Source: Congeria kusceri (lineage: Eukaryota; Mollusca; Bivalvia; Myida; Dreissenidae). Taken from it: DNA of 64,000 nt. Both the position numbers and the translations under genes were made by a program. Below, piece after piece: positions 1 to 40,150 of this stretch (positions are counted from its first letter, which is position 1; every line of letters begins with the position of its first letter). The notes beneath the pieces were generated by a model. The model was not told the origin of the DNA. It made no database searches and saw only the letters and a program-made list of their open reading frames with translations. The stretch covers positions 21,331,356-21,395,355 of the forward strand of contig CM051029.1 of assembly GCA_027627225.1 (NCBI GenBank). Reading direction: 5' to 3'.

Positions 1-3000
1 CAGAACATTCTACCCATGTGTTTTGGAACTAAGGAGTTATACAGCATAATGTGGCAATTCGCCCCATCCCCTAATATTAAAGCATCCACACAGAGAGCAG
101 ACCCCTGTCAAGGCAGATCATTCTACCCATGTGTTTTGGAACTATGGAGTTATACAGCATAATGTGGCAATTTGCCCCATCCCCTAATATTAAAGCATCC
201 ACACAGAGAGCAGACCTTTGTCAAGGCAGAACATTCTACCCATGTGTTTTGGAACTAAGGAGTTATACAGCATAATGTGGCAATTTGCCCCATCCCCTAA
301 TATTAAAGCATCCACACAGAGAGCAGACCCCTGTCAAGGCAGAACATTCTACCCATGTGTTTTGGAACTAAGGAATTATACAGCATAATGTGGCAATTCG
401 CCCCATCCCCTAATATTAAAGCATCCACACAGAGAGCAGACCTTTGTCAAGGCAGAACATTCTACCCATGTGTTTGGAACTAAGGAGTTATACAGCATAA
501 TGTGGCAATTCGCCCCATCCCCTAATATTAAAGCATCCACACAGAGAGCAGACCCCTGTCAAGGCAGAACATTCTACCCATGTGTTTTGGAACTAAGGAA
601 TTATACAGCATAATGTGGCAATTTGCCCCATCCCATAATATTAAAGCATCCACACAGAGAGCAGACCTTTGTCAAGGCAGAACATTCTACCCATGTGTTT
701 GGAACTATGGAGTTATTCAGCATAATGTGGCAATTCGCCCCATCCCCTAATATTAAAGCATCCACACAGAGAGCAGACCCCTGTCAAGGCAGAACATTCT
801 ACCCATGTGTTTGGAACTAAGGAGTTATACAGCATAATGTGGCAATTTGCCCCATCCCCTAATATTAAAGCATCCACACAGAGAGCAGACCTTTGTCAAG
901 GCAGAACATTCTACCCATGTGTTTTGGAACTATGGAGTTATACAGCATAATGTGGCAATTTGCCCCATCCCCTAATATTAAAGCATCCACACAGAGAGCA
1001 GACCCCTGTCAAGGCAGAACATTCTACCCATGTGTTTGGAACTATGGAGTTATACAGCATAATGTGGCAATTCGCCCCATCCCCTAATATTAAAGCATCC
1101 ACACAGAGAGCAGACCCCTGTCAAGGCAGAACATTCTACCCATGTGTTTGGAACTAAGGAGTTATACAGCATAATGTGGCAATTTGCCCCATCCCCTAAT
1201 ATTAAAGCATCCACACAGAGAGCAGACCTTTGTCAAGGCAGAACATTCTACCCATGTGTTTTGGAACTATGGAGTTATACAGCATAATGTGGCAATTTGC
1301 CCCATCCCCTAATATTAAAGCATCCACACAGAGAGCAGACCCCTGTCAAGGCAGAACATTCTACCCATGTGTTTGGAACTAAGGAGTTATACAGCATAAT
1401 GTGGCAATTTGCCCCATCCCCTAATATTAAAGCATCCACACAGAGAGCAGACCCCTGTCAAGGCAGAACATTCTACCCATGTGTTTGGAACTAAGGAGTT
1501 ATACAGCATAATGTGGCAATTTGCCCCATCCCCTAATATTAAAGCATCCACACAGAGAGCAGACCTTTGTCAAGGCAGAACATTCTACCCATGTATTTTG
1601 GAACTATGGAGTTATACAGCATAATGTGGCAATTTGCCCCATCCCCTAATATTAAAGCATCCACACAGAGAGCAGACCCCTGTCAAGGCAGAACATTCTA
1701 CCCATGTGTTTTGGAACTATGGAGTTATACAGCATAATGTGGCAATTTGCCCCATCCCCTAATATTAAAGCATCCACACAGAGAGCAGACCCCTGTCAAG
1801 GCAGAACATTCTACCCATGTGTTTTGGAACTAAGGAGTTATACAGCATAATGTGGCAATTCGCCCCATCCCCTAATATTAAAGCATCCACACAGAGAGCA
1901 GACCTTTGTCAAGGCAGAACATTCTACCCATGTGTTTTGGAACTAAGGAGTTATACAGCATAATGTGGCAATTCGCCCCATCCCCTAATATTAAAGCATC
2001 CACACAGAGAGCAGACCCCGGTCATGGCAGAACATTCTACCCATGTGTTTTGGAACTAAGGAGTTATACAGCATAATGTGGCAATTCGCCCCATCCCCTA
2101 ATATTAAAGCATCCACACAGAGAGCAGACCCCTGTCAAGGCAGAACATTCTACCCATGTGTTTTGGAACTAAGGAGTTATACAGCATAATGTGGCAATTT
2201 GCCCCATCCCCTAATATTAAAGCATCCACACAGAGAGCAGACCCCTGTCAAGGCAGAACATTCTACCCATGTGTTTTGGAACTAAGGAGTTATACAGCAT
2301 AATGTGGCAATTCGCCCCATCCCCTAATATTAAAGCATCCACACAGAGAGCAGACCCCTGTCAAGGCAGAACATTCTACCCATGTGTTTTGGAACTAAGG
2401 AGTTATACAGCATAATGTGGCAATTTGCCCCATCCCCTAATATTAAAGCATCCACACAGAGAGCAGACCTTTGTCAAGGCAGAACATTCTACCCATGTGT
2501 TTTGGAACTAAGGAGTTATACAGCATAATGTGACAATTTGCCCCATCCCCTAATATTAAAGCATCCACACAGAGAGCAGACCCCTGTCAAGGCAGAACAT
2601 TCTACCCATGTGTTTTGGAACTAAGGAGTTATACAGCATAATGTGGCAATTTGCCCCATCCCCTAATATTAAAGCATCCACACAGAGAGCAGACCCCTGT
2701 CAAGGCAGAACATTCTACCCATGTGTTTTGGAACTATGGAGTTATACAGCATAATGTGGCAATTCGCCCCATCCCCTAATATTAAAGCATCCACACAGAG
2801 AGCAGACCCCTGTCAAGGCAGAACATTCTACCCATGTGTTTGGAACTAAGGAGTTATACAGCATAATGTGGCAATTTGCCCCATCCCCTAATATTAAAGC
2901 ATCCACACAGAGAGCAGACCTTTGTCAAGGCAGAACATTCTACCCATGTGTTTTGGAACTATGGAGTTATACAGCATAATGTGGCAATTTGCCCCATCCC

Positions 3001-5152
3001 CTAATATTAAAGCATCCACACAGAGAGCAGACCCCTGTCAAGGCAGAACATTCTACCCATGTGTTTTGGAACTATGGAGTTATACAGCATAATGTGGCAA
3101 TTCGCCCCATCCCCTAATATTAAAGCATCCACACAGAGAGCAGACCCCTGTCAAGGCAGAACATTCTACCCATGTGTTTTGGAACTAAGGAGTTATACAG
3201 CATAATGTGGCAATTTGCCCCATCCCCTAATATTAAAGCATCCACACAGAGAGCAGACCCCTGTCAAGGCAGAACATTCTACCCATGTGTTTGGAACTAT
3301 GGAGTTATACAGCATAATGTGGCAATTCGCCCCATCCCCTAATATTAAAGCATCCACACAGAGAGCAGACCCCTGTCCAGGCAGAACATTCTACCCATGT
3401 GTTTGGAACTAAGGAGTTATACAGCATAATGTGGCAATTTGCCCCATCCCCTAATATTAAAGCATCCACACAGAGAGCAGACCCCTGTCAAGGCAGAACA
3501 TTCTACCCATGTGTTTTGGAACTAAGGAGTTATACAGCATAATGTGGCAATTCGCCCCATCCCCTAATATTAAAGCATCCACACAGAGAGCAGACCCCTG
3601 TCAAGGCAGAACATTCTACCCATGTGTTTTGGAACTAAGGAGTTATACAGCATAATGTGGCAATTTGCCCCATCCCCTAATATTAAAGCATCCACACAGA
3701 GAGCAGACCCCTGTCAAGGCAGAACATTCTACCCATGTGTTTGGAACTATGGAGTTATACAGCATAATGTGGCAATTCGCCCCATCCCCTAATATTAAAG
3801 CATCCACACAGAGAGCAGACCCCTGTCCAGGCAGAACATTCTACCCATGTGTTTGGAACTAAGGAGTTATACAGCATAATGTGGCAATTTGCCCCATCCC
3901 CTAATATTAAAGCATCCACACAGAGAGCAGACCCCTGTCAAGGCAGAACATTCTACCCATGTGTTTTGGAACTAAGGAGTTATACAGCATAATGTGGCAA
4001 TTCGCCCGATCCCCTAATATTAAAGCATCCACACAGAGAGCAGACCCCTGTCAAGGCAGAACATTCTACCCATGTGTTTTGGAACTATGGAGTTATACAG
4101 CATAATGTGGCAATTCGCCCCATCCCCTAATATTAAAGCATCCACACAGAGAGCAGACCTTTGTCAAGGCAGAACATTCTACCCATGTGTTTTGGAACTA
4201 AGGAGTTATACAGCATAATGTGGCAATTCGCCCCATCCCCTAATATTAAAGCATCCACACAGAAAGCAGACCTTTGTCAAGGCAGAACATTCTACCCATG
4301 TGTTTTGGAACTATGGAGTTATACAGCATAATGTGGCAATTCGCCCCATCCCCTAATATTAAAGCATCCACACAGAAAGCAGACCTTTGTCAAGGCAGAA
4401 CATTCTACCCATGTGTTTTGGAACTAAGGAGTTATACAGCATAATGTGGCAATTCGCCCCATCCCCTAATATTAAAGCATCCACACAGAGAGCAGACCCC
4501 TGTCAAGGCAGAACATTCTACCCATGTGTTTTGGAACTATGGAGTTATACAGCATAATGTGGCAATTCGCCCCATCCCCTAATATTAAAGCATCCACACA
4601 GAGAGCAGACCCCTGTCAAGGCAGAACATTCTACCCATGTGTTTTGGAACTAAGGAGTTATACAGCATAATGTGGCAATTTGCCCCATCCCCTAATATTA
4701 AAGCATCCACACAGAGAGCAGACCCCTGTCAAGGCAGAACATTCTACCCATGTGTTTTGGAACTAAGGAGTTATACAGCATAATGTGGCAATTTGCCCCA
4801 TCCCCTAATATTAAAGCATCCACACAGAGAGCAGACCTTTGTCAAGGCAGAACATTCTACCCATGTGTTTTGGAACTAAGGAGTTATACAGCATAATGTG
4901 GCAATTTGCCCCATCCCCTAATATTAAAGCATCCACACAGAGAGCAGACCTTTGTCAAGGCAGAACATTCTACCCATGTGTTTGGAACTAAGGAGTTATA
5001 CAGCATAATGTGGCAATTCGCCCCATCCCCTAATATTAAAGCATCCACACAGAGAGCAGACCCCTGTCAAGGCAGAATATTCTACCCATGTGTTTGGAAC
5101 TATGGAGTTATACAGCATAATGTGGCAATTTGCCCCATCCCATAATATTAAA
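1..5152. repeat. 113-bp satellite array, about 45 copies
   Basis: Head-to-tail copies of a unit of 113 bp (112 bp when TGTGTTTTGG loses one T) run from the left edge of the window to about 5152. Copies are nearly identical and differ at a few recurrent sites: ACTAAGG/ACTATGG, CAATTCG/CAATTTG and GACCCCTG/GACCTTTG. The array stops abruptly after ATATTAAAG. It continues beyond the left edge, so its true length is unknown. It lies upstream of the first visible UGGT exon, probably inside a UGGT intron, because the preceding exon of the family is not found between the array and position 5670. The ORFs of about 65 codons in it recur in register with the unit and are artefacts. Confidence 0.97.
3180..4080. 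repeat. duplicated 450-bp four-unit block within the satellite
   Basis: Two consecutive 450-bp blocks (two 112-bp plus two 113-bp units) share the same order of variants. The rare variant TGTCCAGG occurs once in each, at about 3375 and 3825, exactly 450 bp apart. This is a small higher-order repeat and points to recent local expansion. Confidence 0.85.
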
Positions 5153-5669
5153 GACTCCTTGAAAAACATTATCAGTGGTCTATTTCATGGCTTTTTTTCC
5201 CCACAGTGGTAAAGGGGCCTGGGCCTGTTCAGTTTGTAAAAAGTGAGCCCAATGAAATAGCAAATTGATTTTGTGTCACCTTTAAAGTGAAGTTTATGCT
5301 TATATGTGTAATTTGAAAATAAGAAAAACCCTGTCAGTTAGCACGTTGCACCAATTGATGTAGAAATGTATCATATTTAAATATGAATCTATGTTAGTAA
5401 GGCCAAAAAAAATGTTGTTTGGCAATATTGTATTGTTAATAGCGAATTAGTGTATGGAAATTATTATGAACTCAGGATCTCCAGACCGCAAGGCAGGCAC
5501 CATATCTAATATACCACTGTGACTTGGCATGTTGTGGAAATTATTATGAATATGCAGAATGCAGTATTAATTGGATGCTTGGTTGAGTTAAACCTGTAAA
5601 TTATTTACATCAGTGCTGTCAATCAGGAATTGTCACTTTTATTGCGTGTGTTCGGTTCTTTACTTTCAG
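5153..5669. other. intron sequence upstream of UGGT exon 1 of the window
   Basis: AT-rich single-copy sequence between the satellite and the first visible exon. It holds a short direct repeat (GGAAATTATTATGAA at about 5456 and 5536) and ends in a pyrimidine-rich tract and TTTCAG acceptor at 5664-5669. No further coding segment is visible. Confidence 0.6.
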
Positions 5670-5754: not shown

Positions 5755-8700
5755 GTATGTTGATGAAAAGTGTTATACAAAATATAAAAATGCAGAACCT
5801 ATAATTATCTAACCAACATGAATTCCAAAAATTATATCTATCAGAAAATATTCATGAATTCATTTTTAGGGGGCTATATAGGAGTGAGCTTGTCGGTCTG
5901 TTGGTTTCCATGGTTTCTGGATGATAACTCAAGAAAGGCTTGACATATTCAAATAATTTGTGGTACTCGTGCAACATCATAGAACACAGGTCAGGTTAGA
6001 CTTTGGTTACAAACCACTAAATTTTGACAGAGTTATGGTCCCTTTACAACAACTTAAATTCTCTAAAAACATGGTTTCCCGACGATAACATAAGAATGGC
6101 ATAAGACATATTCAAATAATTATGCCTGCCATCGAAGATGTCGGCCTGTCTGCCGGTCTGTCTGCCGGTCGGTTGGTAGACCATTTTCGTTTTCGATCTC
6201 TAAGTTCAACAGTCGGTCGGTCGGTAGACCATTTTTGTTTCCACTCTCTAAGTTCAACAGTTTTTATCTGATCTTCACCAAACTTCATGAAAATGTTTTT
6301 GGGCATAATATCTAGGTCAATTTTGATGATCAGTCAAATTGCCCCAGGAATTGTGGAGTAATGGCCCTTGAATTATCTAAAATTAGCCTTTTTAGCCGTT
6401 TCCGCTCTCTAAGTCCAATAGTTTTCATCCAATCTTCACCAAACTTTATGAAAATGTTTGTTATTATAATATCTAGGTCAAGTTTGATAATCGGCCTCAT
6501 CGCTTCTGGTATTGTGGAGTTATTGCCCTTGAATAATCTGAAATTGGCCTTTTTAGCGGTTTCCGCTCTCTAAGTCCAACAATTTTCATCCGATCTTCAC
6601 TACACTTCATGAACATGTTTGTGGGCATAATGTTTTGGCCAAGTTTAATAATCAGCCAAATCGCCCCAGTAATTTTGGAGTTATGGCCCATGAATTATCT
6701 AAAATGGGCTGTTTAGCAGTTTCTGTTCTCTTAGTCCAACAGTTCATAGCCTGTCTTCACCGAAATTGGTGAAAATCTTTGTGGGTGTGTTATCTCAGTT
6801 AAGTTTGATAATCAACCAAATCGTCCCAGGAATTGTGGAGTTGAAACCCTTAATTATCTAAAATTAGCCTGTTTAACTGTAGCTATTTTAACCTGTTTTG
6901 CCCCCGCATAACTGTTTTACAAACAGCTCTTGTTCTTGGTACACATGTGTAGCATCATAAAATACAGGTAAAGTTCGACTTTGGTGACAAACCACACATT
7001 TTTTACAGAGTTATGGCCCCTTTTTGGCTTAAATTCCCTAAAAAGATGGTTTCTGGACAATAACTCTAGAATGGCTTGACATATTCAAATAATTTTTGGT
7101 ACACGTTTGTAGCATCCTAAAATACAGGTGAAGTTCTACTTTGATTACAAACCACTACATTTTGACAGAGTTATGGCCTGTTTTTGGCTGAAATTCCCTA
7201 AAAACATGTTTTCAGAACAATAACTCATGAAAGTCTCCACATATTTAAAATTATTTTTGGTGCATAGGTGTAAAACCATAAAATACAGGTCAGGTTCAAC
7301 TTAAGTAACAAACCACTGAGTTCTGGCTCCTGTTAAAATTAAATTTTTCAAAATACACTGTTAAACATTCACAAATTAAAGCATTCTCATTGTGTCCATT
7401 TCTTTCGAATGGATGTTTTGTGACAAGGCCATATTGTGGGGGTATATCCGTCACTCATGTGACAATTCTAGTTATGTCTGTTTTCAGTATAGATATCTGA
7501 ATACTTTTCAATTGGAGATTTGAAAATAAGGCAGACGGATAAATGCCCGTACCAGTATAAGTACACATTCCCTAACCAGTGGTTGCCTCGCTGGATGAAA
7601 GACCCGTTAGCAGATCCTTGGAGGGATTCAGATTATCACCAGTAGAATGCGGAATTGTTGCAGTAATCTCAGAAGGCTGGGTCTCGCTGTGACCGCTTTG
7701 GGAAATTTTTGGATTGGCTGTTTGATGAAGATGGCTATACGTTTGTATCGTCGAAGACCCTTGGCCTATATCTGGCTAAACTGGCTGTTTGATGAAGATG
7801 GCTATACGTTTGTATTGTCGAAGACCCTTGGACTATATCTGGCTAAACTGGCTGTTTGATGAAGATGGCTATACGTTTGTATCGTCGAAGACCCTTGGCC
7901 TATATCTGGCTAAACTGGCTATTTGATGAAGATGGCTATACGTTTGTATCATCGAAGACCCTTGGCCTATATCTGGCTAAACTGGCTATTTGATGAAGAT
8001 GGCTATACGTTTGTATCGTCAAAGACCCTTGGCCTATATCTGGCTAAACTGGCTAATGTGAGGCTGCACCTGGTCTGATTGTAATTGAGACATTGAAGAT
8101 TGTACACTGACGGCATTGATATATAACTGCCTGGACCAGAAAAGTTTAGCTCAAAGTTTTGATGGCTCGAAGTTTTAGTGTCGGTCCCTGCGACTTCGAG
8201 CCATTGGGAGTGGTCTGTATATGGTAATGCTTGCTACAGATTCTGAGAAGGCGGAGTCAAAATGGCCAAAGGCCAGAAAAAGTGCCCATTAAAAACAAAA
8301 TTGTTTTAATGATTAAGTGTTCCACTTAATGGGTGAAATCCAGCCATATCATTGGATCAAAATAAAGGTCATATTCTGATGTGTGGTATTCTTCATTTCA
8401 GGAGTTCATTCCTCACTACGCCAAGGAGTACGGTTTCGAGTACGAGCTGGTGCAGTACAAGTGGCTTCGCTGGCTGAACCTATATCCTAATGTGTGTTAT
8501 TCTTGATTTCAGGAGTTCATTCCTCACTACGCCAAGGAGTACGGTTTCGAGTACGAGCTGGTGCAGTACAAGTGGCCGCGCTGGCTGAACCAGCAGAGGG
8601 AGAAACAGCGCATCATGTGGGGTTTCAAGATTCTATTTTTAGACGTCCTCTTCCCGCTCGATGTGAAAAAGATCATCTTTGTAGATGCAGATCAGGTAAG

Positions 8701-11700
8701 ATAGAAGCGGTGAATGGAGTTTATCCCTTTTGATAAAAACAAATCATAGGGCATCCCTTTTGATAAAAACATATCATAGGGGAACATTAGCCCGAGGCCA
8801 AAAAAATAAATTGTGTGTTTCGGGCAACGGTCTCAATGTTTTTTTTTAAAGACACATTTCAGTCCAAAACATAGAAATTAATCTAAAATCTGACAAATAC
8901 GGATTTCACAGAAAACAAAAGTCGCTAAAAACTTTAGGGTCGGGGGGCTTTCGCTAGGTAGGGTCGGGTTGCCCGAAACACAGAATTTTCCATCATGACT
9001 TGTCAAAGCTGACAAAAAGCATTTTATGATTTTTCAAGGCACAGAACTGCTTACAATTAGGATCATGTGCCCATTCTACATGTGGTTTTATTGTGTACAT
9101 ACTGTAGCAAAGGGAATATTGTCCACCTCTGCAAACTTTGAAAGGGGCTTATGTCGTTCTTTGAAGGGGCAAATGTCCTAGAATTAGTTTAATCAACACA
9201 ACAGCTCACATGTAACATACATTTGTACTTACTTGTGTTACAGTGCAGCAAATTATTCTTACTCTTAAGGTTTAAATTTTCGTTATAATTTATTTTCTTT
9301 AAATGTTCATGATTTCAGAAGAAATGGAAAATGAAGAAAATGGATCAGTGTAAAACTAAAAAAAAATTCTGATTTGTCTTTGCCAGATTGTGCGTACAGA
9401 TCTGCAGGAGCTATACGACCTTGACCTGGGTGGCGCTCCGTATGGCTACACACCATTCTGTAGTGACAGGAAGGAAATGGATGGCTTTAGGTCAGTACAT
9501 GGCAGCATACAACATTTCATCCAGCTAAAAAAATCTCACTTATCTTTTATGCTACATATCATAAAAATACACGCCACTTTGTACGTTTCTGTTCTTGTAT
9601 GTATGTCATATGAGTTTACTTAGTGATATATATATATATAGTTCATAAAGCCTGTTTACAGAATGTCACATTTATTTTGATTCATTTTTTAACACATTCA
9701 TGGTATTTATTAAGTTTCAACTCAGTTCGTTGCTATTGGTGTACAGTGTATGTGTTGTATTTTCCAGGTTCTGGAAGTCAGGTTACTGGGCAGGCCACCT
9801 TTCTGGCAGATCGTACCATATCAGGTATGGAGTGGGTGTGTGTTTGAACAAGTATGGGTATTTGTGTATGTTAAATTAGGCCTACACCATAGATAGCCGG
9901 GCCTGGCTAGCTCAGTTGGTAGAGCGCTAGACTGTCAATCCGGGAATCGTGAGTTCGAACCCCAGCCCGGCCACATAACTTGTGTGGGAATTGGTCATAA
10001 AATTATTTCTACGGCCATTCTCCCTATACCTCTGATTAAAGTAGGGCAGTTGTCAGTTACTGGCATAGGTATGTGCACTTAGTACTGGTAAACCGCTTAG
10101 ATAGGCTAAGCTTGCCCAGGAAAAGTGTGAGTAGGTTAACTGACCGCCGTGGTATGACTGAAATTATGTTAAAAGCGGTTAAAAATCCCAACAAACAAAC
10201 AAACATTATAGATGTTTTCCTTATAACAGAATACCGCTTAAGAAAGTTTTATTGACAGATGTTATCTGTCGAGTTGCAATTATCATTTACCCGTATAAAA
10301 TTGAAAGCCAACATGATTTATTAAAGCCCTTTTTTGTCATGATTAATCATGTCCAGTGCTCTTTATCAAAAAAACTTCAAGCCAGTGACCCTTTAGGCAG
10401 CCAACTGTCAATAAATCCGTATCATAAAACATTTCCAGTGCTCTTTTTGTAGTAGACCTCAGGCTTTCTGTCAGATCGCTGCCCATGACTGGCTGTGTAG
10501 CCAACTTTCAAGTAATCCATGTACCCATAATTAAATATTTCCAGTTCTCAGTCTCACTGGACTTGATTATTTTTTGTCAAATAGCCACCTGTAACTGGCC
10601 GGTCAGTAATCCATTTAATTAAATATTTCCAGCAAACTGTACAAGGCAGACTACACGAGTTCCTATCGGATTGCTGGCCAGCCAACTGTCAATTAATCCA
10701 TATAATAACACATTTCCAGTGCTCTGTATGTGGTGAACCTCAACGGTTTCTGTCAGATAGCTGATAGGTTACTAGTGACTGACTTGTGATCCATGTAAAT
10801 AATATTTCCAGTGCTCTGTATGTTGTTTTCCTCAAAGCTGTCTGTCAGATTGCTTCTCCGGACTAGCTGTGCATCCAGCTTTAAAGTAATCCATTTTTAG
10901 GCTGTCAACTGGTCCTACTTTTCCTACTTTATCCTACTTTTTTGATTCACTCATACATGTACTTTTTCCTACTTTTTGGTATAAAATCTCCTATTATTCC
11001 CACTTTTTTAGTTTGTGAGAAATCAAGATGAATTACATAATGTTTTATATGAAAATGAACAATGTTTTAAGTCTATTTGTAGATCTGTTGTGTAGATGGG
11101 ACAATGTGGTACCTTCACCTGCTAATTTGACTGTTGTGTCCGGTACTATTTATATTGTATGTATTGACTTTGACATGCAAAACATTGTATACGCAGGCAT
11201 TTTAAAGGTGCTTAGATATTTGAAAGGTATTTTTAATCAAGTTAAAAGTCATGTACACTGAAGAATAAATCTATTGTCCTATACAAGTGTATATATAAAT
11301 GTGATTTTGTTCCTAATGGTGGGCTTACTGATGGAGCTCAGTGTACTTTCAAGATGAAAATGTCCAGTGTAGAGTTTATGCAGATCATATATAAAATAAG
11401 GTTTTGCTAATCTGAAAACATTACATATTTAGAATCTGGGATAAACGCCACACTGCCTCAGAAATCTAGCAGGTTGTAAACTACTTCTTTATCACCTAAA
11501 TTGGAAATCAAAACAATAGGTTTAATGAAGTTATATTGATAACAACCTCAGCAATGCATTGACCAGTTTTCTTCTTTTTGTTGTAAATGAAAATGTTTAG
11601 CGATTTCTAAAAATATAGCTATTTATCAAGTTTTATTTTTATACATACCGAGTGTTGTTCCTTTTGTATTATGAAAGAAAATCTCAAAGATGGAGTTTAA

Positions 11701-14700
11701 CCCCATGATAAATTTTGTAAATGTCAAACCAATATCTTAGAAATCCTCGTGTGTTTGTAAATTGTGATAAGTTGTGCTAAATTCACATATTCATTAGCCA
11801 TATGTCCTCCCGCCTTATTGGTGTAAAACAAATGCCAGGGACATATGAATTCACAGACATCTTGATGTGGGTTAAAGTCTCTGACTGTTGATCACTTGTC
11901 CCTTACCACTGTAGGTCCAAACCACAGTAGACTCAAACCTTAATGGGCTCAGATTCCTTTAAGTGAGAAAGCTACTCTCCAACCTTAATGGGCTCAGATT
12001 CCTTCAAGTGAGAAAGCTACTCTCCAACCTTAATGGGCTCAGATTCCTTCAAGTGAGAAAGCTACTCTCCAACCTTAATGGGCTCAGATTCCTTCAAGTG
12101 AGAAAGCTACTCTCCAACCTTAATGGGCTCAGATTCCTTCAAGTGAGAAAGCCTCTTCTAGCTTGTTGTAGTCATAGCCTTATTCATATTAAGCTAGTTA
12201 TTGGTATGTTTGTATCATAAATTAATAAATAAAATAAAAAAATCAGGATTTTGGGTAAGTGTTAAAAGAATTAATACGTTTTGATGAGAAATATATACTT
12301 TTTCCTACTTTTTTTCCTACTTTTTTAAAAAGAAAGCTCCTATTTTTTTCCTACTTTTTCACTGAGGACGAGTTGACAGCCTGCATTTTACAAAATATTT
12401 CCAGTGCCCTGTAAGTGGTGGACCTGAAGCTTTTCCACCAAATCGCGGCAGGAGGCCGGCGTCAAAGCCAACTTTATATGCTACTCATCCTAGCTCTAGT
12501 TACGTCATGATTGATATATTTTCAGTGCTCTCTGCATGATGGACCTCAAGGGTTTCTGTCAGATCCCTTCCCGGAATTGGCGTCAAAGCTAACTTTTAAG
12601 TTATCCATGTAAAAAAATTTTTTCCAATATTCTATACGTTGTAGTCCTGAAGCGTTTCCGCCAGATCACGGCTAGTGACCAGCATCAAAGCCAACTTCAA
12701 ACAATCCATGTAATTCTATTTGATTTATGCGTTTTCCCATGTTTTGACATTTCCAGTGCCCTCTACGTTGTGGACCTGAAGCGTTTCCGTCAGATCGCTG
12801 CGGGAGACCGCCTGCGGGGCCAGTACCAGGGCCTCAGCCAGGACCCGAACTCCCTGTCCAACCTGGACCAGGACCTGCCCAACAACATGATCCACCAGGT
12901 GGCCATCAAGTCCCTGCCCCAGGAGTGGCTCTGGTGTGAGACCTGGTGCAGCGACGAGTCCAAGAAACACGCCAAAACTATAGACTTGGTATGACTTGAT
13001 TTGTCAGTTTTTGTTGTCGGTTTGAACGGTGGAAACATGCCAAAACTATAGACTTGGTATGACTTGATTTGTCAGTTTTTGTTGTCGGTTTGAACGGTGG
13101 AAACATGCCAAAACTATAGACTTGGTATCACTTGATTTGTCAGTGTTTGTTGTCGGTTTGAACGGTGGAAACATGCCAAAACTATAGACTTGGTATCACT
13201 TGGTTTGTCAGTTTTTGTTGTCGGTTTGAATGGTGGAAACACGCCAAAACTATAGACTTGGTATGACTTGATTTGTCAGTTTTTGTTGTCGGTTTGAACG
13301 GTGGAAACACGCCAAAACTATAGACTTGGTATGACTTGATTTGTCAGTTTTTGTTGTCGGTTTGAACGGTGGAAACATGCCAAAACTATAGACTTGGTAT
13401 GACTTGATTTGTCAGTGTTTGTTGTCGGTTTGAACGGTGGAAACACGCCAAAACTATAGACTTGGTATCACTTGATTTGTCAGTGTTTGTTGTCGGTTTG
13501 AACGGTGGAAACACGCCAAAACTATAGACTTGGTATCACTTGATTTGTCAGTTTTTGTTGTCGGTTTGAACGGTGGAAACATGCCAAAACTATAGACTTG
13601 GTATCACTTGATTTGTCAGTTTTTGTTGTCGGTTTGAACGGTGGAAACATGCCAAAACTATAGACTTGGTATCACTTGATTTGTCAGCTTTTGTTGTCGG
13701 TTTGAACGGTGATAATTTTAAAGTAGCCCATGCTTTTCTGCATACTATACTGCTGCTTACGTCATTCACCAAATACTAAACGAGGTTACTTGTAACCAAT
13801 CCCAACTTCAAGGCATAACAAATTTGCTTTGATGTATAGCATGTCTTTTCATTTAGATTCCTTTTCTTCATTATTACAGAGTTTCTCCTTTCTTCCATTT
13901 CATATTTGTTAAAATAATGTTTGTTATATAATTGTCTTACTTTGAACTGTACAGCTGATTTGTCTATTAATTATATTTTTTCTTGGTAGTAATTTATCAA
14001 GTAGATTCCTTTTCTTTATAATTAAAGTGTTTCTTCTTTCTTCCATTTCATATTTGTAAAAAGAGTGTTTGTTATATTATTGTCTTATTTTGATCTGTAC
14101 AGCTGAATTGTTTATTAATATTATTTTTGCTTTACAGTGTAATAACCCAATGACCAAAGAGCCAAAGTTAAAAGCTGCCATGCGTATAGTGCCAGAATGG
14201 AAGAACTATGATTTCGAGATAAAAGTATTCTGGGATTCCATATATGGCACGAATACAAGATCTCAAATAGAATACGAGCCTCCAGAGATTGATAGCAAAA
14301 AGAAAGGTAAGGCAGATATGGTCGCATTTTGTAAATTACATAAGTAATTATTAATTGAATCGTTTTTCAGAAGATTGTAATACTAGATCTGTATGCATAC
14401 AGTAACATGTAAGCATTTAATAAATGATGGTATATTGTACTTGATAGTTTATTCTTACGGTTGATTGAAATAGTTTGTAAAATATTAACTTGTTATTATA
14501 ATTATTATTTTAACGTGATAGTAATAAAAATGTGTATGTGTAAATATATTTAAATATAATAATATATAATTTAGTATTGCTATTGTTCTGATATGAATAT
14601 TTGAACGTTAAATAATATTAATACATTCTAAGTTGTAAATATCTAGTCATTTGATTTCATCTGTAATTGTATTTGTTGTTAGCTCACCATGAGCACAAAG

Positions 14701-17700: not shown

Positions 17701-18867
17701 TGAAACCACAAGGCCCAGAAGTTTCATATTTGGTTGGAAACATTGTATAGTGGTCCTCTATAAAGATTGTTCAAATGATGCCCCTGGGGTAAAAACTGGG
17801 CACACCCCAGGGGTCACATGGTTTATATAGACTTAAATAGCAAAATGGCTTTAAAAATCTTCTCCTCTGAAACTGCAAGGCCCAGAGGTTTCATATTTGG
17901 TACGTGACATTTTATAGTGGTCCTCTGCAAAGATCGTTCAAATGATGTCCCAGGGGTTAAAACTGGGCCTGCCCTGGGGTCACATTGTTTATATAGACTT
18001 AAATAGCCAAATGACTTTAAAAATCTTCTCCACTGATACCCCAAGGCCCAGAGGTTTCATATTTGGTATGTGACATTTTATAGTGGTCCTCTGCAAAGAT
18101 TGTTCAAATGATGTCCCAGGGGTCAAAACTGGGCCTGCCCTGGGGTCACATTGTTTATATAGACTTAAATAGCCAAATGATTTTAAAATCACCTGAAACC
18201 GCAGTGTTTTCATATTTGATATGTAACATTGTATAGTGGTCCTCTACAAAGATTGTTCAAATTATGCCCCTGGGGTAAAAAGTGGCCATGGCACGGGGCG
18301 TCACATGATTTATATAGACTTATATGGCAAGTGGGCCTTATAAATCTTCCTTGTTGAAACCGTAAGGCCCAGAGGTTTTATGTTTTGCGTGAAACATTGT
18401 GGAGTGGTCCTCTACAAAGAGTGTTCAAATGATGTCCCTGGGGTAAATATTGGCCACCCCCTGGGGGTCACATGCTTTATATACATTTAAATAGCAAAAT
18501 GACTTGAAAAATCTCCTCTTAAACCGCAAGGCCCAGTGGAATCATATTGGGTATGTAACATTGAAAAGTGGTCCACTACAAATATTGTTCAAATTATGCC
18601 CCTGGAGTACAAGGTGGCCATGCCCTGTGGGTCACATGGTTTATGTAGACTAAAAAAACATCTGACACTCCAAAGGCCCAGATCTTTATACTCAGGTAAG
18701 GTGTTTAGTGCCATTTTTCCCTCTTGTTATTAGCCATTATGATGCCTTTAACTCAGGTGAGCGACCTAGGGCCATCATGGCCCTCTTGTTTTTCATTTTA
18801 TTTTGTGTCACTCACATTTATGTTTTCTCTCTTTTCAGAGGCGTGGAGAAATAAAATTGAATTATAA
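5670..18867 (+). CDS. UGGT1: UDP-glucose:glycoprotein glucosyltransferase, C-terminal part (7 exons)
   Basis: Joined exons 5670-5754, 8513-8695, 9387-9490, 9768-9824, 12757-12988, 14138-14306 and 18839-18867 give 285 residues plus one split codon, all with GT/AG introns and matching phases. UGGT is the ER-lumen folding sensor: it transfers glucose from UDP-glucose to the N-glycan of misfolded glycoproteins so that calnexin/calreticulin rebind them. The fragment matches the GT24 catalytic domain through its end: [22 protein letters not shown], the metal-binding DAD in [57 protein letters not shown] and [10 protein letters not shown]. The start of the catalytic domain and the large folding-sensor region lie left of the window. 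The chain ends in KIEL, a KDEL-like but non-canonical tail. UGGT1/UGGT2 assignment is not possible for an invertebrate; the symbol means the family. Confidence 0.96.
5868..7473. mobile_element. tandem-repeat-bearing non-autonomous element
   Basis: Nested imperfect repeats occupy the first half of the intron. One type (about 190 bp, with GACAGAGTTATGG and CTTGACATATTCAAATAAT) occurs at both ends, about 5930-6110 and 6930-7340. A second type (about 170-185 bp, with CTCTAAGTCCAA, CCAAACTTCATGAAAATG and TTGTGGAGTTATGGCCC) is repeated about four times between them, 6180-6900. The right edge reads ATATTGTGGGGGTAT ... TCACTCATGTGACA. Such elements are common in mollusc genomes by recollection. No coding capacity. 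Confidence 0.6.
7540..8055 (+). pseudogene. protein-like relic, family not recognised
   Basis: One frame reads like protein for about 70 codons, interrupted only by TAG and [21 protein letters not shown], then [10 protein letters not shown], stop, AELLQ, stop, [17 protein letters not shown] and [16 protein letters not shown]. Its end is amplified as a minisatellite. I do not recognise the family. It could be a decayed transposon or retrogene inside the UGGT intron. It does not match the UGGT region expected here. Confidence 0.35.
7716..8055. repeat. 67-bp minisatellite, 5 copies
   Basis: Units begin GGCTGTTTGATGAAGATGG at 7716, 7783, 7850, 7917 and 7984, exactly 67 bp apart, with only a few substitutions (CGTCGAAG/ATCGAAG/CGTCAAAG). 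The array sits in the intron before UGGT exon 2 and carries the end of the protein-like relic. Confidence 0.93.
8056..8369. other. intron remainder with a 12-bp-stem hairpin
   Basis: Single-copy intron sequence. ATGGCTCGAAGT (8162-8173) is the exact reverse complement of ACTTCGAGCCAT (8193-8204), a 12-bp stem with a 19-nt loop. No coding segment seen. Confidence 0.55.
8370..8480 (+). pseudogene. truncated duplicate of UGGT exon 2 (acceptor plus first 79 bp)
   Basis: A 111-bp direct tandem copy of 8481-8591. It contains an intact TTTCAG acceptor (AG at 8400-8401) and the first 79 bp of exon 2, [20 protein letters not shown] in translation, with WPRW changed to WLRW. No donor follows. If this acceptor were used, reading would continue into the second copy's intron tail and meet a TGA in frame (CTATATCCTAATGTGTGTTA, then TTCTTGA). 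I infer a decoy or pseudo-exon. Confidence 0.92.
8513..8695 (+). CDS. UGGT1: UGGT exon 2 (DAD metal-binding exon)
   Basis: 183 bp, 61 codons, phase 0 at both ends, acceptor ATTTCAG and donor GTAAGA. Encodes [20 protein letters not shown], then [19 protein letters not shown] and ends [13 protein letters not shown]. The DAD is the DxD-type motif that binds the divalent metal and UDP-glucose in GT24 enzymes. I chose this copy over the upstream duplicate because only it has a donor and an open frame. Confidence 0.96.
8700..8780. repeat. 31-bp direct duplication after the exon 2 donor
   Basis: ATCCCTTTTGATAAAAACA followed by TATCATAGGG or AATCATAGGG occurs twice in a row, the first beginning only about 25 bp downstream of the donor. 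Confidence 0.75.
8781..9386. other. intron between UGGT exons 2 and 3
   Basis: AT-rich intron sequence with no repeat or coding signal that I can support. It ends in TTTGCCAG at 9379-9386. Confidence 0.5.
9387..9490 (+). CDS. UGGT1: UGGT exon 3
   Basis: 104 bp, acceptor TTGCCAG, donor GTCAGT. Encodes [20 protein letters not shown] and [14 protein letters not shown] plus the first two bases of an Arg codon completed by exon 4. [10 protein letters not shown] is a hallmark of the GT24 domain. Confidence 0.95.
9768..9824 (+). CDS. UGGT1: UGGT exon 4
   Basis: 57 bp, acceptor TTTTCCAG, donor GTATGG. Completes the split Arg and encodes [18 protein letters not shown], then AG, the first two bases of the Ser codon completed by exon 5. 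The FWKSGYWxxHL motif is typical of UGGT. Confidence 0.94.
9899..10205 (+). mobile_element. tRNA-headed SINE, copy 1
   Basis: A tRNA-like head at 9900-9972 has a mostly paired acceptor stem (GGCCTGG/CCCGGCC), box A (TAGCTCAGTTGGTAGAGCG) and box B (GAGTTCGAACCCC). It is followed by a body shared with the copy at 24761 (TTATTTCTACGGCCATTCTC, GTAGGGCAGTTGTC, GGTTAACTGACCGCCGT) and an (AAAC)n tail. Imperfect T- and anticodon stems and the conserved tail show a SINE rather than a tRNA gene. It lies in the intron between exons 4 and 5. Confidence 0.88.
10356..10898 (+). pseudogene. ladder of six decayed copies of the UGGT exon 5 acceptor and 5' end
   Basis: Exon-like segments start at 10356, 10439, 10545, 10633, 10720 and 10812, 83-106 bp apart. 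Most are preceded by TTTCCAG, as in the real exon 5 acceptor. Several still translate like its opening [14 protein letters not shown]: the copy at 10720 gives [14 protein letters not shown] and that at 10812 gives [14 protein letters not shown]. After about 50 bp each runs into a shared spacer (AACTTTCAAGTAATCCAT or similar). None has a donor. Divergence is much higher than in the 68-bp array downstream, so this set looks older. Confidence 0.9.
10899..12382. mobile_element. 1.5-kb TIR element inserted in the exon-copy ladder
   Basis: Begins AGGCTGTCAACTGGTCCT and ends AGGACGAGTTGACAGCCT, an inverted repeat of about 18 bp. The flanks CCATTTTT and GCATTTTA match at 6 of 8 positions, compatible with a decayed 8-bp target duplication of hAT type. 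TCCTACTTTTT motifs cluster near both ends. No transposase frame is visible, so it is non-autonomous. It splits the ladder of exon 5 copies, so it arrived after the ladder formed. Confidence 0.72.
11936..12155. repeat. 45-bp minisatellite, 5 copies
   Basis: The unit CTACTCTCCAACCTTAATGG plus GCTCAGATTCCTTCAAGTG and AGAAAG repeats every 45 bp inside the TIR element. Because 45 is a multiple of three, it produces a periodic open frame ([15 protein letters not shown]), which I take to be an artefact. Confidence 0.92.
12405..12756 (+). pseudogene. three more decayed copies of the UGGT exon 5 acceptor and 5' end
   Basis: Exon-like starts at 12405, 12536 and 12628 continue the ladder up to the real exon at 12757. 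The 12405 copy gives AL, stop, [13 protein letters not shown] after TTTCCAG. The 12536 copy gives [16 protein letters not shown] after TTTTCAG with no stop. The 12628 copy gives [17 protein letters not shown] but its acceptor is mutated to CCAA. Each runs into GCRTCAAAGCYAACTT spacer sequence. Confidence 0.9.
12757..12988 (+). CDS. UGGT1: UGGT exon 5 (LDQDLPN exon)
   Basis: 232 bp, acceptor ATTTCCAG, donor GTATGA. The first T completes a Ser codon and 77 codons follow: [59 protein letters not shown] and [18 protein letters not shown]. The LDQDLPN segment carries the Asp that helps coordinate the metal in GT24 enzymes. Codon use is much more GC-rich than in exons 1, 6 and 7. Both edges of this exon are amplified in the flanking introns. 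Confidence 0.96.
12964..13713. repeat. 68-bp minisatellite carrying the exon 5 3' end and donor, 11 copies
   Basis: GCCAAAACTATAGACTTG followed by GTATGA or GTATCA recurs every 68 bp at 12971 (the exon itself), 13039, 13107, 13175, 13243, 13311, 13379, 13447, 13515, 13583 and 13651. Each unit contains the last 18-24 bp of the coding exon, the splice donor and about 44 bp of intron (TTGTTGTCGGTTTGAACGG). Copies differ at few sites. Use of any later donor would read through TTGGTATGA and stop in frame. Confidence 0.96.
13714..13850. other. short single-copy part of intron 5
   Basis: Joins the 68-bp array to the duplicated acceptor segment of exon 6. Nothing coding is visible. Confidence 0.5.
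13851..14137 (+). repeat. 148-bp tandem duplication of intron end with exon 6 acceptor
   Basis: AGATTCCTTTTCTT, CTTTCTTCCATTTCATATTT and CTGTACAGCTGA recur with an offset of 148 bp. The first copy ends in a TTGGTAG whose AG (13988-13989) sits exactly 148 bp before the genuine AG (14136-14137). The duplication therefore reproduces the acceptor position, but nearly nothing of the exon. Confidence 0.88.
14138..14306 (+). CDS. UGGT1: UGGT exon 6
   Basis: 169 bp, acceptor CTTTACAG, donor GTAAGG. Encodes [20 protein letters not shown] and [17 protein letters not shown], a polar tail [11 protein letters not shown] and one base of the next codon. The [10 protein letters not shown] and RIVPEW motifs are conserved in the family; the tail after EIK is variable in all UGGTs. 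Reading through the donor would give a tail ending CKLHK, with no retrieval signal. Confidence 0.94.
14307..14680. other. AT-rich start of the last UGGT intron
   Basis: Very AT-rich, with TAATATTA-type runs. No coding or structured element that I can support. Confidence 0.5.
14681..18785. mobile_element. long element with about 14 internal 160-168-bp tandem repeats
   Basis: Starts with a 16-bp-arm hairpin (AGCTCACCATGAGCAC and GTGTTCATGGTGAGCT, 14681-14715), then CCGTCGTTCGTGCGTGCG. About 14 diverged tandem units follow, each with GGTTTATATAGACTTAAATAG, GGCCCAGAGGTTTCATATT, GTGGTCCTCTACAAAGATTG and TGATGCCCCTGGGGTCAAAA. The end reads CTCAGGTGAGCGACCTAGGG and CCATCATGGCCCTCTTG. By recollection this type is abundant in bivalves. 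It fills most of the last UGGT intron and is interrupted by foreign sequence at 16060-17471. Confidence 0.78.
16060..17471. mobile_element. 1.4-kb insertion inside the tandem-repeat element
   Basis: The repeat unit breaks after ACTGGCTACAT (16049-16059) and resumes after ACTGGCCACAT (17461-17471), an 11-bp direct repeat with one mismatch that looks like a target-site duplication. The 1.4 kb between is unrelated to the repeats. I see no terminal inverted repeat, poly(A) tail or convincing ORF in it, so the insertion type is unknown. Confidence 0.5.
18839..18867 (+). CDS. UGGT1: UGGT exon 7, C-terminus and stop
   Basis: 29 bp after acceptor CTTTTCAG. With the G from exon 6 it encodes EAWRNKIEL and TAA. 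The total length after the CNNP motif (65 residues) fits the family, and the chain ends in KIEL. This resembles the KDEL-type retrieval tail but departs from the strict [KRHQSA][DENQ]EL pattern at its second position. The acceptor, phase, length and tail together support it; RNA evidence would settle it. Confidence 0.78.
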
Positions 18868-31581: not shown

Positions 31582-34023
31582 AATTAGAACAGAACAGAAC
31601 AGAACATTTTATTTAAGTCTTGTACAAGTACATCGTCTACAACACATATCAATATAATACATGCAATCAACATGACATAGCGTAGTGTTAAATAAATATA
31701 TATAATTCATTCTAATCAATGCATATTTCGAAAGTAGGAAATCGGAGAATGAACGTTAACCGTGTGTTAATTATTAACGAAAGTTAGTGCATTTCTAACA
31801 TTTTCATAGCTTCCTTAATAAACTTACACAGATTAAAAACATCTGATTTAATAGTTGAATTTAAAAGCTGGGTAAATTTATAGACAGACGGTTTTACATA
31901 GAAATATCTTCTAATATATTTTTTTCTGATCTCAGTATAACAGTTGCAAATGATGGCAAAATGGTATTCGTCCTCTATATCTGTAGAATTACAAAGTGTA
32001 CAATATCTTTCCTCTCGTGGAATTCGATTATATCTTCCTGTTTGTATTCTGAGAGGAAGTCCATTTAATCTTAATCTACTCATGTATAAGCAATAACGTT
32101 TTGATAAAATATCTAAATATGGCTCGTAATAATGTGTTGATTTACACAATTTATACTGACACAACATTTAGCTGTTGTCAATTTTTGACATCGTTTCTTG
32201 TTTAAACGTGTCTATAATACGGGTTTTTAACTCATTCAAAAATAAATCCAGATTGATACTGCTAACATTATCAAATACATATGCAAATCCATAATCAGCT
32301 AACAACTTTCTTATATTTGCTGCCCAATTTAAATGTCCGTTATAACTATCAATAACAGATTGGGAATAAATAGTTTTAACAATAATATTGTTTGAGCTAG
32401 CAATTTTCAGCCAGTATTTAATCATTGTAATATATCTACTAATAAACAATGGGTAACGTCCCAACTCACTATATGTAATTGCATTACAAGTATTTATTTT
32501 AACCTTTAACAATCGCTTGCAAAACTTAAGGTGGACTCTTTCAAGTTCCTTTGACTTAGTATAACCCCATACTTCAAAGGAATAATTCAATATAGGACTC
32601 ACAAAGGCATCAAATAACTGACACATTGTCTTAAGGCTTAAGTCAAACTCCTTACATTTGCATAAAAGAATGTTCATTGCTTTCAAAGCTTTACCAACTA
32701 GGTGTTCCTGATTTAAAATAAATTTTCCAGAGTAATTAAAAATTGTTCCTAAAAGTTAAAATCATTTACAACTTCTATTTTTTGTCCATCGTATGACCAG
32801 TTTTCACTATTTAATAATCCACCCCTTTTACGAAAAAACATAATTTTAGTCTTCGAAGTATTTACCTTGAGTCCCCAGGTATCACAGTATGACTTTAAAC
32901 TATTTAAATGTTGTTGTACCTCACATGGGGTTTTACCTAAAATGGCCATATCGTCTGCAAAAAGTAGAAGTATCAAAACAATATCATCTAAAACTAGGCC
33001 AGTATCTTTTTGTAAAAACAACTCTAAATCTTCGACCAAAATAGAAAACAATAGAGGTGACATTACTTCGCCTCGATGCAAGCCCACTGCATATTCAAAG
33101 TAATCAGAATAATTAGAACACAGTTTAACACGAGATTTAACATGCTGATACATATCTCTTACAATTCTTAAGAGTTTTCCACGTACACCACAATTGTATA
33201 ATTTCAACCACAAACCATTTCTATAAATAGAATCAAAACATTTCATCATGTCAACGAAAATAACATATAACCTTTTGTTTTCACTAATATATTTTTGCAC
33301 CAATGACATAAGTACAATTATTGCATCAACAGTGGATCTACCTTTACGGAATCCGAATTGCGCATCCGAAATAGTGTTGTGGTCATTACAAAACTGCTCA
33401 ATTCGCTTGTTTATAACTGTAGTAAAAAGCTTCGCTAAACAACTAACCACTGTAACTCCTCTATAATTATTCACATCGTTTTTATCACCCTTTTTATGCA
33501 ATGGGATAATTATACCTTCAGTCCAGTTATCTGGAAAATAACCTGAGTTTAGTATAGAATTAAACAGATCACACAAATGTGATGATAAAATATCAATACT
33601 TTTAATTAAGTATTCATTTAAAATACAGTCACTGCCAAAAGCTTTGGTCCGTTTCAAAGATTTCACAGCGGTAACGATTTCATTAACGGTAAAAGGTTGA
33701 TCTAGTTCAGGAAAATATTCATTAGGATAATTAAAATCATTGTTTTCGCAAAAAGTCTCCGCCTGAACATTTTCACAATCAAAAATGTCGTTACTTAAAT
33801 TTGAAAAATATTCTTTGAACTCATTTAATGATAAATTATTTCCCACATTACTCGTTCGTTTGCTGAAATATTTCCAGAACTCTTTTGGTTTACTCTTTTT
33901 TAAGTTTTGAATTTCAACCATCTTTCGCTTGTAAAATATTGACTTCTTTTTACGTATGAAATTTTTTATAATTCCTCTTACTCTCACATAGCTGTATTCT
34001 ATTGGCGTCAGACTGACAAACAT
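31582..34023 (-). mobile_element. 5'-truncated non-LTR retrotransposon (LINE)
   Basis: Minus-strand element with the C-terminal two thirds of a LINE polyprotein and a 3' UTR ending CTTAAATAAAATGTTCTGTT with three to four TGTTC repeats instead of poly(A). No endonuclease domain lies upstream of 34023, so it is 5'-truncated, as is usual for LINE insertions. The exact 5' junction and the target duplication are not resolved. The clade cannot be fixed by eye. Confidence 0.88.
31784..34023 (-). pseudogene. LINE reverse transcriptase and C-terminal zinc knuckle, frameshifted
   Basis: The frame 34023-32749 (424 aa) holds the reverse transcriptase: LHKKGDKNDVNNYRG (about residues 175-189), FGFRKGRSTVDAI (223-235), catalytic Asp in VIFVDMMKCFDS (254-265), HRGEVMSPLLFS (316-327) and FADD (355-358). 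The frame 32686-32168 continues it after what looks like a one-base loss in a T run near 32752. A single in-frame TAA at 32168-32170 then separates it from 32167-31784, which holds the CCHC-like RYCTLCN ... DEYHFAIIC and the tail. The motif before MSPLLF reads HRGE where family members usually have a Gln. Two lesions only: a fairly young dead copy. Confidence 0.9.
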
Positions 34024-34220
34024 TAAAACGACGCAGGTCTGCTAGGTATGCGTTGCGAATATGTGTGCATTCAAGGTCAAACAACATTTCGAATTAGTCT
34101 GCGTGGCAGAGAAAGGCGCTCTTGGCACAGTTTCTTTGATTGGAGGCGTTTAAACAATATCCAATATACATAAACTGTGTGGTGAATAGGCCGCGAAAAG
34201 ACAAACAGTTAAAGCAAAAA

Positions 34221-38206: not shown

Positions 38207-38589
38207 TTAGCAGTTTTTATTAGTATACTTTCAGCGTACCACTTAGAAGTGAATATACATAACCATGCATGGGGTCATGGTTGACAATACAAAGTAATGA
38301 TGCTGTTACTTTTGATAGAACTACAACTGCTATCGCTGCTATTACGATTGCACTAATCAGTTGACTACACCTAATATCAGTATTGCAACACTTATATAAA
38401 TATAATCAGTATTATTGTTATTACTTGTATTACTATTACGTCCATTAATATTGGTACTACTATTGTTGAATTGCAACTTTTACTTCTATTCATTATACTA
38501 CCACTGCTGCTGTTGCTGCTACTGCTGTTACAAAACCAACGAAAATAGCAACAACAACAACTTCTACTACTACAAGCACGCTCCACTAA

Positions 38590-39470
<881 letters not shown>

Positions 39471-39600
39471 CTGCTGCTGCTGCTACTACTGCTGCTACTG
39501 CTGCTACTACCACCACCACTACCACCGCCACCACTACTGCCACCACTATCACCCGTAGCAGCAGCAGCAGCAGCATCAGCAGTAGTCGTGATAGTAGTAT
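39471..39600. repeat. mixed GCT/ACC/AGC triplet junction between the two arrays
   Basis: Runs of GCTGCTGCT, ACCACCACC and then AGCAGCAGCAGCAGCAGC form the hinge between the ACT and AGT arrays. Confidence 0.9.

Positions 39601-40150
<550 letters not shown>

What the first reader, a model, noticed from the sequence alone, without database searches (positions are those of the whole stretch)
10356..12988. Nine decayed copies of one exon's acceptor and 5' end upstream of UGGT exon 5
Seen directly: TTTCCAG plus a degenerate [20 protein letters not shown] segment recurs at 10356, 10439, 10545, 10633, 10720, 10812, 12405, 12536 and 12628 before the real exon at 12757. Spacing is 83-131 bp once a later transposon is removed. 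Only the first ~50 bp of the exon is copied, never a donor. The series is a record of repeated local duplication anchored on a 3' splice site. The surviving AGs might compete with the true acceptor or help define it.
Basis: partly seen in the sequence, partly recalled or inferred. Interest (0 to 1): 0.88.

Follow-up and report, generated by a model that had tools for sequence, protein, structure and literature searches.

The report
Echoes of exon edges in introns
In a mussel-family gene, short stretches of DNA covering the edge of an exon have been copied over and over into the neighbouring intron, leaving rows of dead splice sites; this kind of repeat is known from lancelets, but here it is in a bivalve and touches many exons of one gene.

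Summary
Eight of nine stand far above control intron; 10356 is marginal; "12536" should be 12526. A genome search with the left block hit only this intron and its exon. Across the whole gene (35 exons) 13 of 68 splice boundaries carry such copies, acceptor copies upstream, donor copies downstream, none wrong-sided at the same cut. Two myosin exons show the same. About half of random intron segments are locally duplicated too. This matches the "mirages" of amphioxus: tandem duplications across an exon-intron boundary that stay intronic. A splicing role for the surviving AGs is not shown; 89 of 90 copies would bring a premature stop if used. New member of a known kind; no bivalve case was seen in my paper listings.

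The parts
12757..12988 (+).
10340..12756 (+). acceptor-side array of exon 33: nine decayed units (intron tail + 3' splice site + exon head) plus the spacer of the true acceptor
10356..10380 (+). copy 1, exon-like part; marginal, partly deleted; AG kept
10439..10503 (+). copy 2, exon-like part; AG kept
10545..10585 (+). copy 3, exon-like part; AG kept; recognised mainly by the shared unit
10633..10678 (+). copy 4, exon-like part (end approximate); AG kept; recognised mainly by the shared unit
10720..10763 (+). copy 5, exon-like part; AG kept
10812..10854 (+). copy 6, exon-like part; AG kept
10899..12382 (.). later insertion with 18-nt terminal inverted repeats (94%) and a possible decayed 8-bp target duplication (6 of 8, read by eye), splitting the spacer between copies 6 and 7
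12405..12458 (+). copy 7, exon-like part; AG kept
12526..12568 (+). copy 8, exon-like part (reader: 12536); AG kept
12628..12680 (+). copy 9, exon-like part; AG lost (AA); the only one of 90 copies in the gene whose use would be in frame and open
12964..13711 (+). donor-side array of exon 33: 68-bp unit = last 25 nt of exon + GTATGA/GTATCA donor + 43 nt of frame in all, 11 units including the real one, 97% alike
8371..8591 (+). acceptor-side duplication of exon 30 (authentic exon 8513-8695): 111-bp unit x2, 94%; upstream exon-like start at 8402
13854..14132 (+). 148-bp x1.9 tandem repeat reaching into the polypyrimidine tract of exon 34 (14138-14306); no exon sequence copied

Best explanation
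These are 'mirage' minisatellites. A segment of about 95 bp spanning the intron-exon junction was tandemly duplicated in the DNA. The outer copy is cut off from the rest of the exon, so it lies in the intron and is free to decay. The array grew by further duplication of units or blocks, and a TIR element later landed in one spacer. The same process acts on donor sites, where the dead copies pile up downstream. Inferred steps: splicing keeps using the innermost, authentic site because only that one borders a whole exon; the copies have no function of their own; the intron simply grows outward from the exon's edges.
For: Copies hold intron and exon sequence in register across the boundary, so the event was in DNA and not from mRNA. 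Exon-only queries find copies at 13 of 68 boundaries with score 16 or more, in the intron on the duplicated side; the wrong side reaches at most 13 in 66 tests. The nearest copy lies 56-129 bp from the real edge at 12 of the 13. Left block of the array found only in this intron and its exon. Introns are widely duplicated locally: 290 of 600 random 60-mers against 29 of 600 for the best of up to 8 controls each; exon centres 1 of 15. The gene model using only the authentic boundaries gives 1521 residues, aligned without gaps and 90.6% identical to Dreissena polymorpha UGGT1. Closest units are not neighbours (10439-10720, 10812-12526). Same structures at two myosin exons (their exon ends are inferred).
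Against: No RNA was available, so use of the authentic sites is inferred from protein conservation. The acceptor core ATTTCCAG evolves at about a fifth of the rate of the rest across the nine dead copies (2dlnL 19.4, first of 113 windows), which pure neutrality does not predict; a fairer comparison weakens this (68 of 72 against 164 of 199, p = 0.011) and the other arrays do not show it (76 of 88 against 270 of 314, p = 0.54). Not all copies sit at tandem spacing: exon 8's lies 2154 bp off, and exons 10 and 21 have copies about 600-730 bp off. UGGT (13 of 68 edges) is hit more than the sampled myosin exons (2 clear of 60), which is unexplained.
Confidence: 0.88

Rival explanations
1. The surviving upstream acceptors are functional: decoy or regulatory splice sites kept by selection, for example producing transcripts that are destroyed by nonsense-mediated decay and so tune UGGT level.
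For: Acceptor core is the slowest part of the array; AG kept in 8 of 9; 88 of 90 copies in the gene would give a stop inside the inserted piece, and the two that would not (exon 33 copy 12628, exon 13 copy) are the two of 20 acceptor copies that have lost AG (the three weak exon-33 units read).
Against: The rate excess mostly goes when compared with codon positions 1+2 outside CpG and is absent in exons 9, 10, 13, 15, 21 pooled. The AG/stop link rests on two cases and was seen after the fact; stops are expected by chance in intron pieces of this length.
Confidence: 0.08
2. A dispersed transposon or SINE that happens to resemble the exon.
For: The intron does contain mobile-element-like pieces (10899-12382).
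Against: Genome search with 560 bp of the array returns only this intron and the exon; arrays of other exons carry their own exons' sequence. The search skips very common words and scores only the best candidates, and the right block was not searched, so it is not a perfect test.
Confidence: 0.01
3. Remnants of once-functional duplicated exons (mutually exclusive exons) now decayed.
For: Near-whole-exon copies do exist in myosin genes here. Codon position 3 varies more between copies than positions 1 and 2 (identity 0.525 against about 0.66).
Against: Spacing of 83-129 bp leaves no room for a 232-bp exon, and the copies align only to the first 42-66 bp of the exon. The codon-position pattern is also expected if units budded at different times from an exon that was changing only synonymously.
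Confidence: 0.02
4. Assembly artefact.
For: Young near-identical arrays (donors of exons 12, 23, 27, 33) are hard to assemble, so copy numbers may be wrong.
Against: Units of the exon 33 acceptor array are only 57-82% alike and carry a later insertion; such divergence does not come from misassembly.
Confidence: 0.01

Closest known systems
'Mirage' minisatellite-like duplications of intron/exon boundaries in amphioxus (globins BflGb6 and BflGb9, Adh3, TnC, PGBD5; PMC3087553: passages and section 16 read; PMC3902484: one passage read)
   Same: Tandem units of tens to about 160 bp spanning an intron-exon boundary, at acceptor or donor ends; many units keep AG/GT; regular splicing reported as undisturbed there.
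   Different: Here in a bivalve; 13 of 68 boundaries of a single gene; both ends of one exon; the exon 33 acceptor array is old (copies 57-82% alike; 81-100% for BflGb6 in that paper).
Intron gain by tandem duplication across an intron-exon boundary, potato RdRp (PMC4974935; abstract and results section read)
   Same: The duplicated segment holds the intron's 3' end and the exon's 5' end.
   Different: There a new intron and an inserted exonic piece arose. Here no extra exon: the copies only lengthen the old intron.
Internal tandem repeats in human genes of segmental duplications (PMC2812944; start of abstract and passages read)
   Same: Repeats at exon-intron boundaries change gene structure.
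   Different: Those lengthen coding sequence or form novel introns.
Artificial duplicated-splice-site constructs (Reed and Maniatis 1986; recalled, nothing seen)
   Same: Several near-identical splice sites in cis, one chosen.
   Different: Natural, with up to dozens of copies; which is chosen is untested.

Membership tests
Mirage minisatellites | repeat unit spans an exon-intron boundary and holds both exon and intron sequence | tested here: met
Mirage minisatellites | head-to-tail array, unit of tens to about 160 bp | tested here: met
   exon 33 acceptor 83-129 bp; donors of exons 12, 33, 23, 27: 68, 68, 72, 59 bp. Exon 8's copy, 2154 bp off, does not fit
Mirage minisatellites | both acceptor and donor ends can be affected | tested here: met
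   6 acceptors and 7 donors of 68 boundaries
Mirage minisatellites | authentic splicing undisturbed | not testable with these tools
   no RNA; the gene model on authentic boundaries is intact
Mirage minisatellites | length instability between alleles | not testable with these tools
   one assembly only
Intron gain by tandem duplication | a new intron or exon in the coding sequence | tested here: not met
   protein of the authentic exons aligns without gaps to D. polymorpha UGGT1 over 1521 residues; at the protein level only, no RNA
Dispersed transposable element | copies elsewhere in the genome | tested here: not met
   (left block; limits of that search apply)
Retrocopied exon fragments | intron sequence absent from the copy | tested here: not met
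   copies carry intron flank in register
Tandem whole-exon duplication (mutually exclusive exons) | complete exon with acceptor and donor | tested here: not met
   exon-33 copies align to the exon head only and spacing is below exon length; near-whole-exon copies were seen instead in myosin loci m8a and m17

The most novel reading that the evidence does not exclude
In this bivalve lineage, splice-boundary mirages are a main way in which introns grow outward from exon edges, and the dead splice sites are tolerated, or even kept, only where a stop codon behind them shields the protein. The arrays would then be natural competition assays for splice-site choice and fossil records of an exon's past synonymous states.
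Probability: 0.2. Interest if true: 0.72.

Novelty: new member of a known kind. Interest (0 to 1): 0.5.

Why it matters
Mirages were described in cephalochordates. Finding them in a bivalve, at 13 of 68 splice boundaries of one conserved gene, suggests that the process is not a lancelet oddity and can be measured. Each array is a natural test of how the spliceosome picks one site among many alike: presumably the last of ten acceptor-like sites and the first of eleven donors around a single exon. The decayed units may also preserve earlier states of the exon: of 46 exon sites compared, the copies' majority differs from the exon at 9, and 7 of these are third codon positions.

Tried and rejected
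Selection on ghost acceptors: first looked strong; weakened by a fairer comparator and not seen in the other arrays, so not claimed. One search's own exon 33 figure (45 of 48 against 138 of 152, p = 0.38) uses trimmed local alignments of the 6 strongest copies, which raises exon identity; one search uses all nine.

Cut-off: the score of 16 was set. The rule written in that script (own score above the control maximum by more than 2) marks 15 of 68 on the right side, adding the donor of exon 3 (15) and the acceptor of exon 9 (14), and 1 of 66 on the wrong side (acceptor of exon 32, 13 against 10). The exon 34 repeat is not counted because no exon sequence is copied. One search includes the three weak exon-33 units and leaves out exons 3 and 9.

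Frame preference: the nearest copy lies at a multiple of three at 6 of 13 boundaries (72, 90, 111, 114, 129, 2154), about 4 expected; no clear sign of in-frame use. Age gradient along the array: none clear.

Other genes: of 18 myosin exon matches in three loci (36 edges) four exons had copies; on inspection one is a donor mirage and three look like near-whole-exon copies. Of 12 more myosin exons (24 edges, flanks of 1.2 kb) one is a clear donor mirage and one is weak (score 19). These 30 are part of the 82 places listed. A survey of a second family (PF00118) did not complete, nor was the genome search for the insertion. Orthologous introns of other bivalves were not available to me.

A slip in my scripts: the last intron's ends were set by hand one base off (exon 34 ends at 14306 and exon 35 starts at 18839); the two slips cancel in the protein and shift two of the 68 boundary queries by one base.
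Full report
WHAT IS THERE. The window holds the end of a UDP-glucose:glycoprotein glucosyltransferase (UGGT) gene on the + strand. The peptide of its seven exons here (29-35) is a GT24 domain that aligns to a solved UGGT domain without gaps over 257 residues. With 200 kb of upstream sequence and the D. polymorpha protein I built the whole gene: 35 exons, 33 introns placed by script as GT-AG and the last one by reading, no stop in the 1512 residues of exons 1-34. It is 90.6% identical to D. polymorpha UGGT1 and 75.7% to those of Mya and Mercenaria, so the source is most likely a dreissenid bivalve; this is inference.

THE ARRAY. Upstream of exon 33 (12757-12988) nine units run head to tail. Each has a spacer, in most units with recognisable pieces of GCCAACTT...AATCCATGTA, an acceptor close to ATTTCCAG and, in the recognisable copies, 42-66 bp of exon head. 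Eight of nine are far above 246 control windows and one, 10356, is marginal. Copies are 57-82% alike, with no clear age gradient; the closest pairs are not neighbours, as in arrays that grow by block duplication or unequal exchange. A 1484-bp insertion with 18-nt terminal inverted repeats splits one spacer. A genome search with the left block returns three places, all in this intron and its exon; the right block's search did not complete.

THE REST OF THE GENE. The finding is one of many. Using only exon sequence as query, 13 of 68 boundaries have copies in the adjacent intron (within 3 kb) with score 16 or more: acceptors of exons 10, 13, 15, 21, 30, 33; donors of exons 8, 12, 16, 18, 23, 27, 33. 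All 13 exceed their own controls from other introns; among all 68 boundaries a control reaches 16 once. Wrong-side tests reach at most 13 (66 tests). The cut of 16 was set afterwards; the script's own rule gives 15 of 68 right-sided and 1 of 66 wrong-sided. The copies continue across the boundary into intron sequence. For exon 12's donor 44 copies were found, mostly 68 bp apart; for exon 23's nine, eight of them in a 72-bp array; for exon 33's ten besides the real one. At 12 of 13 boundaries the nearest copy lies 56-129 bp away; exon 8's lies 2154 bp away, and exons 10 and 21 have some copies about 600-730 bp away, so later insertions or rearrangement must be assumed there. Sidedness follows from the geometry of a tandem duplication across one boundary, since the outer copy is always the truncated one; scattered exon fragments would not show it.

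BACKGROUND. In the same introns 290 of 600 random 60-mers have a local copy on one randomly chosen side, against 29 of 600 when the best of up to 8 other-intron controls is taken; central exon segments have one in 1 of 15. The introns are in good part made of local duplications, and the splice boundaries share in this at a lower rate. Detection differs between the classes, so the ratio is rough.

DO THE DEAD SITES MATTER? AG is kept in 8 of 9 exon-33 copies. Across the nine copies the acceptor core changes at about a fifth of the rate of the rest (2dlnL 19.4, first of 113 windows). But if units budded from the live boundary at different times, the live exon's synonymous drift inflates the rest. 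Against codon positions 1+2 outside CpG the contrast is 68 of 72 to 164 of 199 (p = 0.011, cells taken as independent), and in the pooled other acceptor arrays it is 76 of 88 to 270 of 314 (p = 0.54). I do not claim selection. Use of a copy would put a stop in the inserted piece in 88 of 90 cases; the two exceptions are the two of 20 acceptor copies without AG. This is a hint from two cases, seen after the fact.

OTHER GENES. A myosin on C8 (17623840) has a donor array of the same kind, about 92 bp with at least eight copies; a myosin on C6 (33038248) has another. The exon ends there are inferred from the reading frame and GT. In all, 2 clear cases and 1 weak one of 60 edges, against 13 of 68 in UGGT, with shorter flanks for 24 of the 60. 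Two other myosin loci have near-whole-exon copies, a different thing.

WHAT IT IS. [quoted passage not shown] PMC3902484 (one passage) adds PGBD5 and names Adh and TnC. The three structural criteria that I could test are met, with exon 8 as an exception in spacing; splicing and allele length are not testable here. The related potato case (PMC4974935) made a new intron; this one shows none at the protein level. In the rows listed by the nine answered paper searches (titles and starts of abstracts; some lists were cut) I saw no report in a bivalve; the library lacks most subscription papers. The zebra mussel genome paper (PMC9210306, 12 passages) reports 47.4% repeats, 34.4% of the genome unclassified, and tandem repeats in the mitochondrial genome; the passages shown mention no such arrays.

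VERDICT. Real, ordinary in mechanism, unusual in density and in where it occurs.

Noticed in passing
window 1-5153: 113-bp satellite, about 46 units, 97% alike, inside intron 28 of UGGT.
   Followed up: no
window 7715-8054: 67-bp x 5 tandem array in intron 29, about 320 bp upstream of the exon 30 duplication; its source was not looked for.
   Followed up: no
window 9900-9975: tRNA-like head of a probable SINE in intron 32, read by eye; not tested with a tRNA finder.
   Followed up: no
window 31787-34041, minus strand: Open frames that look by eye like LINE reverse-transcriptase remains; no family search made.
   Followed up: no
window 38585-40150: Very long ACT/AGT trinucleotide tracts, 313 and 190 units.
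   Followed up: no
L025-L026 (C8:4692000-4705000) and L027-L028 (C17:30820000-30834000): Near-whole-exon tandem copies in myosin genes, three downstream copies shown at one exon, perhaps mutually exclusive exons.
   Followed up: partly
window 12628-12756: The one exon-33 copy whose inclusion would be in frame and open (129 bp) is the one that lost its AG.
   Followed up: partly
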